37,686 nt of DNA from Candidatus Buchananbacteria bacterium RIFCSPLOWO2_01_FULL_39_33. Lineage in GTDB: Bacteria; Patescibacteriota; Patescibacteriia; 2-01-FULL-39-33. Numbering within the stretch: position 1 is the first letter of the stretch; each line of letters begins with the position of its first letter. The DNA is taken from assembly GCA_001817505.1 (NCBI GenBank), contig MHIM01000006.1, forward strand, positions 1-37,686, in the 5' to 3' direction. The position numbers were made by a program, and so were the translations under genes. A model generated the notes under the pieces. That model searched no databases, was not told the origin of the DNA, and was given only the letters and a program-made list of their open reading frames with translations. Positions 27,138-28,683 of this stretch are shown piece after piece.

Positions 27138-27455
27138 ATGGAAAAGGAACCGGCTTTTCAGTCAATTGAAGATAAATTTAGACAACAAATTGGTGAAAGA
27201 TTTGATCTCTGGGTTTCTATTATTGATGAGGCAAAAGTGAGTGAAGGGACTAAGGAAAAAATCAAAGAAATATTATCAACTTTTAGAGATAAGGCCTTGG
27301 CTAATTGGTGGGCAGATATAGATGACGCTTTTTATGGAACAATTAACGCCATGTTTAATGCAATTTATGACGAAAGCAATAAAAATGAGGCCAAAGCGCT
27401 GTTTCAAAATATCAGGGATGATATGTGGATGCTATTTAGAGAGATAAGAGATTAA
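27138..27455 (+). CDS. Hypothetical acidic, alpha-helical protein
   Basis: 105-aa ORF in the intergenic space; no recognised motif. Confidence 0.6.
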   Translation: MEKEPAFQSIEDKFRQQIGERFDLWVSIIDEAKVSEGTKEKIKEILSTFRDKALANWWADIDDAFYGTINAMFNAIYDESNKNEAKALFQNIRDDMWMLFREIRD

Positions 27456-27544
27456 AATTTATTACCCTAATAAAATAATATGACATCTCTTAAGGAGGTG
27501 TTATTTTATGAATATTAGCTTATTTCCGTTTAATATTTGATGTT

Positions 27545-27596
27545 TTGTGATAACCAAAATATTTTGTTATAATATAACCATAATTTATGGTTATAT
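27545..27596 (+). promoter_or_regulatory. Promoter plus palindromic operator of the wHTH gene
   Basis: TTGTGA (27545-27550)-17 bp-TATAAT (27568-27573); 25-bp perfect palindrome ATATAACCATAATTTATGGTTATAT at 27572-27596. Confidence 0.75.
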
Positions 27597-27960
27597 GGCG
27601 CTCTCTAACTTGCAAAAATATATCCTCAATAAGGGTTTGGAGGGTCGGGCTAAGACAGTCATCAAGGCGGTTTTAAAAAAGTTTTATGCTGCCAAAAAGA
27701 ACCAGCCCAAAGAAGAAGATCAGCTCAATATTATCACTAAAAGCGTTGAACGGCTGATTAAAAAGGGTTTAGTTAAGGGAATAGGCGTTAAAACTAAAGA
27801 AAAGTGGTTTGTTAAAGAAGTTATCTTAACTAAGAAAGGATTAAAAAAGGCCAAAGAGCTTCTGGGCCAGCAGCAGGAACTGCCTTTTATTAAGAAAATA
27901 TCCGTCAAAGGCGGACCCCATGCCAGAGGCAGGCAAGGCGTCTCTGGCGGGAAAAAATAG
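27595..27960 (+). CDS. Winged-helix-type DNA-binding protein (putative)
   Basis: LQKYILNKGLEGRAKTVIKAVLKKFY ... IITKSVERLIKKGLVKGIGVKTKEKWFVKEVILTKKGLKKAKELL; start taken at MALSNLQ rather than 27547. Confidence 0.65.
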   Translation: MALSNLQKYILNKGLEGRAKTVIKAVLKKFYAAKKNQPKEEDQLNIITKSVERLIKKGLVKGIGVKTKEKWFVKEVILTKKGLKKAKELLGQQQELPFIKKISVKGGPHARGRQGVSGGKK

Positions 27961-27984
27961 AAACTAAAATTTATGGTTAATAAT

Positions 27985-28683
27985 ATGCCCGCCAAAGGCG
28001 GGTCCGCCCCTGGCGGAAAATTAACTTTAGATCAAGTCAAAAATAATCCGAATATTAAATGTTTTCTCAAGCAGACCGATCTTTTTTTGGATGCCATAGG
28101 TTTTACTGATCATGGCCAGCGTCATATCAATATTGTGGCAGATCGGGCCGGGACTCTGGCGCAGAAGATCGGCTTGAATAAAAACGACCAGGAACTCTCG
28201 GCTATTGCCGGTTATTGCCATGACATGGGCAATTTTTTGGGCCGGACTTATCATCATTATTGGGCGGCTTTGTTGTTTTCCCAGGTTTTTATGGAGGAAA
28301 TGGACGGTTCAAGCGATTTAGCCACTATTATGCAGGCCATAGTTACCCATGATAAAAATGAAGTGAAAATAGTCAGTAAAGTTTCAGCCGTTTTGATTTT
28401 AGCCGATAAATCCGATGTTCACCGGACTCGCGTCAGAAAAAAAGACATTAAAAATATTAAATCCGATATTCACGACCGAGTCAATTATTCGGTCACCGAA
28501 AATAAATTATCAGTTGACCGAGGTAAAAGAGAAATTATTCTGCGTCTGAAAATTGATACCAATATCACTAAGCTGCTGGAATATTTTGAAATTTTCATCA
28601 ATCGTATGACTTATTGCCGCTTGGCGGCCGATTATCTGGGCTATAAATTTGTTTTATATATAAATAATTTTAAACTGTCTTAA
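27985..28683 (+). CDS. HD-domain phosphohydrolase
   Basis: FTDHGQRHINIVADRAG, IAGYCHDMGNFLGRTYHHYWAALLF, IVTHDKNEV; alternate start at 27973. Confidence 0.85.
   Translation: MPAKGGSAPGGKLTLDQVKNNPNIKCFLKQTDLFLDAIGFTDHGQRHINIVADRAGTLAQKIGLNKNDQELSAIAGYCHDMGNFLGRTYHHYWAALLFSQVFMEEMDGSSDLATIMQAIVTHDKNEVKIVSKVSAVLILADKSDVHRTRVRKKDIKNIKSDIHDRVNYSVTENKLSVDRGKREIILRLKIDTNITKLLEYFEIFINRMTYCRLAADYLGYKFVLYINNFKLS

What the first reader, a model, noticed from the sequence alone, without database searches (positions are those of the whole stretch)
27545..27597. 25-bp perfect palindrome overlapping the -10 box and start codon of a wHTH gene
ATATAACCATAATTTATGGTTATAT (27572-27596) is a perfect inverted repeat directly following TTGTGA-N17-TATAAT and covering the ATG of a putative winged-helix protein. 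This is a strong autoregulatory-operator arrangement with essentially no 5' UTR (leaderless or near-leaderless mRNA).
Basis: partly seen in the sequence, partly recalled or inferred. Interest (0 to 1): 0.6.

Follow-up and report, generated by a model that had tools for sequence, protein, structure and literature searches.

The report
Self-repressor operator in a short-leader promoter
A small DNA-binding-type protein gene of an uncultured ultra-small bacterium starts inside a perfect mirror-repeat that sits on its own promoter, most likely the landing site by which the protein (or another repressor) switches the gene off; this is an ordinary kind of control, found here only in this genus.

Summary
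ATATAACCATAATTTATGGTTATAT (27572-27596) is a perfect dyad (12-bp arms, 1-bp centre) overlapping the end of TATAAT (27568-27573) and the ATG (27595) of a 121-aa gene; chance in this AT-rich intergenic is about 0.0008. The protein models as a winged helix, nearest solved folds PadR/MarR, but belongs to a family without a Pfam name, present in 136 of 381 genomes of the class. The one sister species that has the gene keeps the promoter register, 27-nt TATAAT-to-ATG spacing and the dyad at 10 of 12 pairs. These are the only matches with at most 1 mismatch in both genomes. Beyond the genus the dyad is absent: relatives mostly lie just behind aspS or an HD gene. An RNA hairpin is disfavoured because the sister sequence does not fold. 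Best reading: a genus-level operator at a terminator-isolated, short-leader promoter, probably autorepression. The binding protein is not shown, and the family's conserved recognition helix without a conserved site argues against a family-wide self-operator. 'Leaderless' is not supported: the predicted leader is about 13-16 nt. Interest is low to moderate.

The parts
27470..27509 (+). hairpin with U-rich 3' side (terminator-like) that separates the wHTH gene from aspS and the 105-aa ORF
   Evidence: RNA fold -13.7 kcal/mol, z -5.1; the sister species has a different terminator-like hairpin at the same place
27545..27550 (+). -35 hexamer TTGTGA
   Evidence: TTTGT kept in the same register in sister G002
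27550..27570 (+). imperfect dyad ATAACCAAAATATTTTGTTAT in the -35/-10 spacer, resembles the main dyad (16 of 21 by eye) 24 bp upstream; possible second site, not kept in the sister
   Evidence: (I1)
27568..27573 (+). -10 hexamer TATAAT, preceded by TGT (extended -10 form)
   Evidence: identical hexamer in G002
27572..27596 (.). 25-bp perfect dyad, proposed operator
   Evidence: 10 of 12 pairs in G002
27595..27960 (+). 121-aa winged-helix protein of an unnamed ABY1/Patescibacteria family; residues ~101-121 are an extra tail absent from relatives
27962..27978 (+). partial second match (2 mismatches, right half intact) over the ATG of the next gene; significance uncertain
27973..28683 (+). HD-domain protein gene, probably same operon
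   Evidence: Pfam HD at cut-off; neighbours wHTH genes in G009 and other relatives

Best explanation
The dyad is a DNA operator built into the core promoter (from the end of the -10 box through the predicted start site to the start codon) of a terminator-isolated wHTH-HD transcription unit. A repressor dimer bound there would block RNA polymerase. The likeliest repressor is the wHTH protein itself (negative autoregulation). Shown: dyad, promoter-like sequence, fold prediction, uniqueness, retention in the sister species. Inferred: start site, dimer, binding, repression, identity of the binder.
For: Dyad unlikely by chance at this spot and unique in the genome. Among 90 family members the dyad scores 12 here and 8 in the sister against a mean of 4.3 (sd 1.6). 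In the sister TATAATATAACCATAA is identical, 27 of 30 nt from TATAAT to ATG match, and TATAAT-ATG spacing is the same 27 nt, while sequence upstream of about -60 does not align. The only hits with <=1 mismatch in G000 and G002 are these promoters. The protein folds like PadR/MarR repressors, whose best matches include complexes with operator DNA. Autorepression through palindromes is documented for a MarR-type regulator (YvmB/PchR, PMC4992311).
Against: Only two species. Both arm changes in the sister break pairs and none is compensatory. The recognition helix (NIITKSxERLI) is nearly invariant across the family, yet the site is absent upstream of the other members and not enriched in class genomes (10 genomes with a hit against about 15 for the reversed control). 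Constraint extends beyond the dyad into the first 10 codons (identical codons 7 of 8 against 28 of 59 later), so initiation-region constraint may explain part of the conservation. Foldseek scores are modest (best E 1e-3, TM ~0.5).
Confidence: 0.5

Rival explanations
1. No operator: the block is conserved because it is a core promoter plus short leader and start region; the perfect symmetry in this one species is fortuitous.
For: Sister has 2 of 12 pairs broken; nucleotide constraint continues ~30 nt into the coding sequence; left arm overlaps -10 and start site, right arm overlaps the start region, both constrained anyway; family-wide absence.
Against: Chance of such a dyad here is below 0.001 and the sister still ranks joint second of 90 for symmetry.
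Confidence: 0.27
2. Operator for a different regulator, which controls the wHTH-HD unit.
For: Conserved recognition helix without a conserved site in relatives.
Against: Site occurs once in the genome, as expected for a dedicated autoregulator rather than a regulon; a local winged-helix protein is the simplest binder.
Confidence: 0.16
3. RNA device: in read-through transcripts the inverted repeat forms a hairpin that hides the start codon, so that only transcripts begun inside it are translated.
For: Full dyad folds at -10 kcal/mol, z -3.3, covering the ATG; a transcript starting at ~27580 lacks it.
Against: The sister's sequence does not fold (0 kcal/mol); a terminator-like hairpin already lies upstream in both species.
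Confidence: 0.06

Closest known systems
MarR-type autorepressors (e.g. B. subtilis YvmB/PchR, PMC4992311; E. coli MarR)
   Same: small winged-helix protein, palindromic site at its own promoter, probable repression by blocking polymerase
   Different: separate sequence family (no Pfam MarR hit; weak PDB profile hit 4xrf MarR E=0.17); shorter, without the longer flanking dimer helices of MarR (from own knowledge); binding not shown
PadR family (B. subtilis PadR-operator complex 5x11; LmrR)
   Same: best Foldseek matches, short wHTH with a C-terminal helix
   Different: E ~1e-3, TM ~0.5, 16% identity; no Pfam PadR hit; dimerisation helix untested

Membership tests
PadR/MarR transcriptional regulators | winged helix-turn-helix fold | tested here: met
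   AlphaFold2 mean pLDDT 79, H5-16 E21-23 H24-32 H40-57 E60-66 E71-78 H80-90; PDB matches
PadR/MarR transcriptional regulators | match to family profile above cut-off | tested here: not met
   no PadR or MarR Pfam hit for any of 30 members, none in NCBIfam for the window protein
PadR/MarR transcriptional regulators | homodimer through terminal helices | not testable with these tools
   only monomer prediction available
autoregulated promoter (negative feedback) | dyad overlapping core promoter of the regulator's own gene | tested here: met
autoregulated promoter (negative feedback) | site conserved with the gene across species | tested here: inconclusive
   kept at 10/12 pairs in the single sister with the gene, absent from 88 more distant members
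autoregulated promoter (negative feedback) | protein binds site and represses | not testable with these tools
   needs EMSA/footprint and reporter assay
leaderless mRNA | TSS at or within a few nt of the start codon | not testable with these tools
   no TSS data; the -10 position predicts a ~13-16 nt leader (inference)

The most novel reading that the evidence does not exclude
An unnamed, ABY1-centred winged-helix family, normally carried passively behind aspS or an HD gene, has in one genus been detached by a terminator and given its own short-leader promoter with a self-operator, i.e. recent gain of negative autoregulation in a candidate-phylum bacterium.
Probability: 0.3. Interest if true: 0.4.

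Novelty: new member of a known kind. Interest (0 to 1): 0.25.

Why it matters
It gives a concrete, testable binding site for an unnamed regulator family that is common in ABY1 Patescibacteria. A small paper search with the terms candidate phyla radiation, transcription factor and winged helix returned nothing. The mechanism proposed is otherwise textbook.

Tried and rejected
Family-wide operator: rejected, dyad absent in 88 of 90 and core not enriched in class genomes over the reversed control. Shared promoter element elsewhere in the genus: the exact 16-mer in G001 lies at the end of another gene with no promoter context, taken as coincidence. Tandem second operator 27550-27570: not kept in the sister. 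Motif at L199 (ATATAACCAT before ATG): a lead in one distant relative, not clearly beyond chance. Near-leaderless promoters as a genome-wide rule: TATAAT near starts is only slightly above shuffles. Ribosomal S20, mnmG and DUF6429 hits: far below cut-offs. The first genome-contig scan with the single protein found nothing. The L053 fold used wrong coordinates and was redone.

Full report
Observation. Markov simulations put a dyad of this size at under 0.001 for this intergenic stretch. Other perfect dyads exist in the genome, several being copies of a repeat, but in 207 kb none of the others lies on a recognisable promoter and start codon. The core is unique in the 973-kb genome.

The gene. 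The product (121 aa) has no Pfam or NCBIfam match above cut-off. 136 of 381 genomes of the same class carry a relative; in a sample across the phylum only one match was outside the class. Named relatives are Candidatus Buchananbacteria, Kerfeldbacteria, Kuenenbacteria, Falkowbacteria, Komeilibacteria, Uhrbacteria and others, so the host is an ABY1-type Patescibacterium (class name from own knowledge). The AlphaFold2 model (pLDDT 79) is a winged helix, and its nearest solved folds are PadR and MarR proteins. The helix at 40-57, with the nearly invariant NIITKSxERLI, is in the position of a recognition helix (inference). Residues beyond ~100 are not found in relatives.

Context. In 42 of 90 family members aspS lies within 150 nt upstream on the same strand, in 9 an HD gene; in 57 an upstream open frame ends within 40 nt. 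In the window aspS is followed by a 105-aa ORF, a strong hairpin (-13.7 kcal/mol, z -5.1) and then the promoter. In sister G002 a different terminator-like hairpin and the same promoter lie between aspS and the gene. The gene thus appears to have its own promoter in this genus.

Conservation. G002 (protein 67-69% identical) keeps TTTGT in the -35 register, TATAATATAACCATAA exactly, the 27-nt spacing to ATG, and the dyad with 10 of 12 pairs. Both arm substitutions are uncompensated. Upstream of about -60 the two sequences do not align. Constraint also runs into the first 10 codons (7 of 8 same-residue codons identical against 28 of 59 later; other family pairs show 45% against 47%). So the conserved unit is promoter + leader + start region, and the dyad is its middle. 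No other relative has a comparable dyad over the start. The core with at most 1 mismatch hits 10 of 381 class genomes against about 15 for the reversed control, yet in G000 and G002 the hit is precisely this promoter.

Mechanism. A DNA operator fits best: symmetric, centred near the predicted start site, next to a winged-helix gene, unique. An RNA hairpin fits less well, because the sister's sequence has no fold (0 against -10 kcal/mol) and promoter-born transcripts would lack the left arm. That the encoded protein is the binder is inference by proximity and precedent (YvmB/PchR autorepression, PMC4992311). The absence of the site from relatives with nearly the same recognition helix is the main reason for holding confidence at 0.5. 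The leader is short, not absent: TATAAT ends 21 nt before the ATG, so a start ~7 nt downstream leaves about 13-16 nt, without Shine-Dalgarno, which is common here (21 of 187 genes have an SD-like motif).

Possible extra sites. A weaker dyad in the spacer (27550-27570) resembles the main one but is not kept in G002. A two-mismatch half site lies over the next gene's ATG (27962-27978); it is one of only two such other sites in the genome, and the reversed control also gives one, so it is noted and not claimed.

Verdict. A real, probably functional promoter dyad; most likely a self-operator of an ordinary kind, restricted to this genus on present evidence.

Noticed in passing
window 27138-27455: 105-aa ORF between aspS and the terminator with no Pfam match.
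   Followed up: no
window 27900-28020: GC-rich repeat-like sequence (CCGCCAAAGGCGG type) makes up the extra C-terminal tail of the wHTH protein and the extra N-terminus of the HD protein; similar repeats lie upstream of relatives in L015 and L021.
   Followed up: partly
window 27494-27540: AAGGAGGTG followed 7 nt later by a 10-codon ORF (MNISLFPFNI), the SD lying in the 3' arm of the terminator hairpin; not present in sister G002.
   Followed up: partly
L044:9178-9207, L046:2325-2354, L047:5910-5937, L049:9112-9141: Repeated perfect palindrome GGTAGAGACGGGGCATGCCCCGTCTCTACC, three times paired with ACCTGCCTGCCGGCAGGCAGGT nearby; looks like a dispersed repeat family.
   Followed up: no
L047:8420-8455: 36-bp perfect palindrome TAAAGATTTGTCTAGACATGTCTAGACAAATCTTTA, not near a called start.
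   Followed up: no
L199:1440-1510: Distant relative (record titled Bacteroidetes MAG, probably mis-binned) has TGTGATATAATATTATATAACCATTATG before its wHTH gene, i.e. a near-leaderless promoter with ATATAACCAT.
   Followed up: partly
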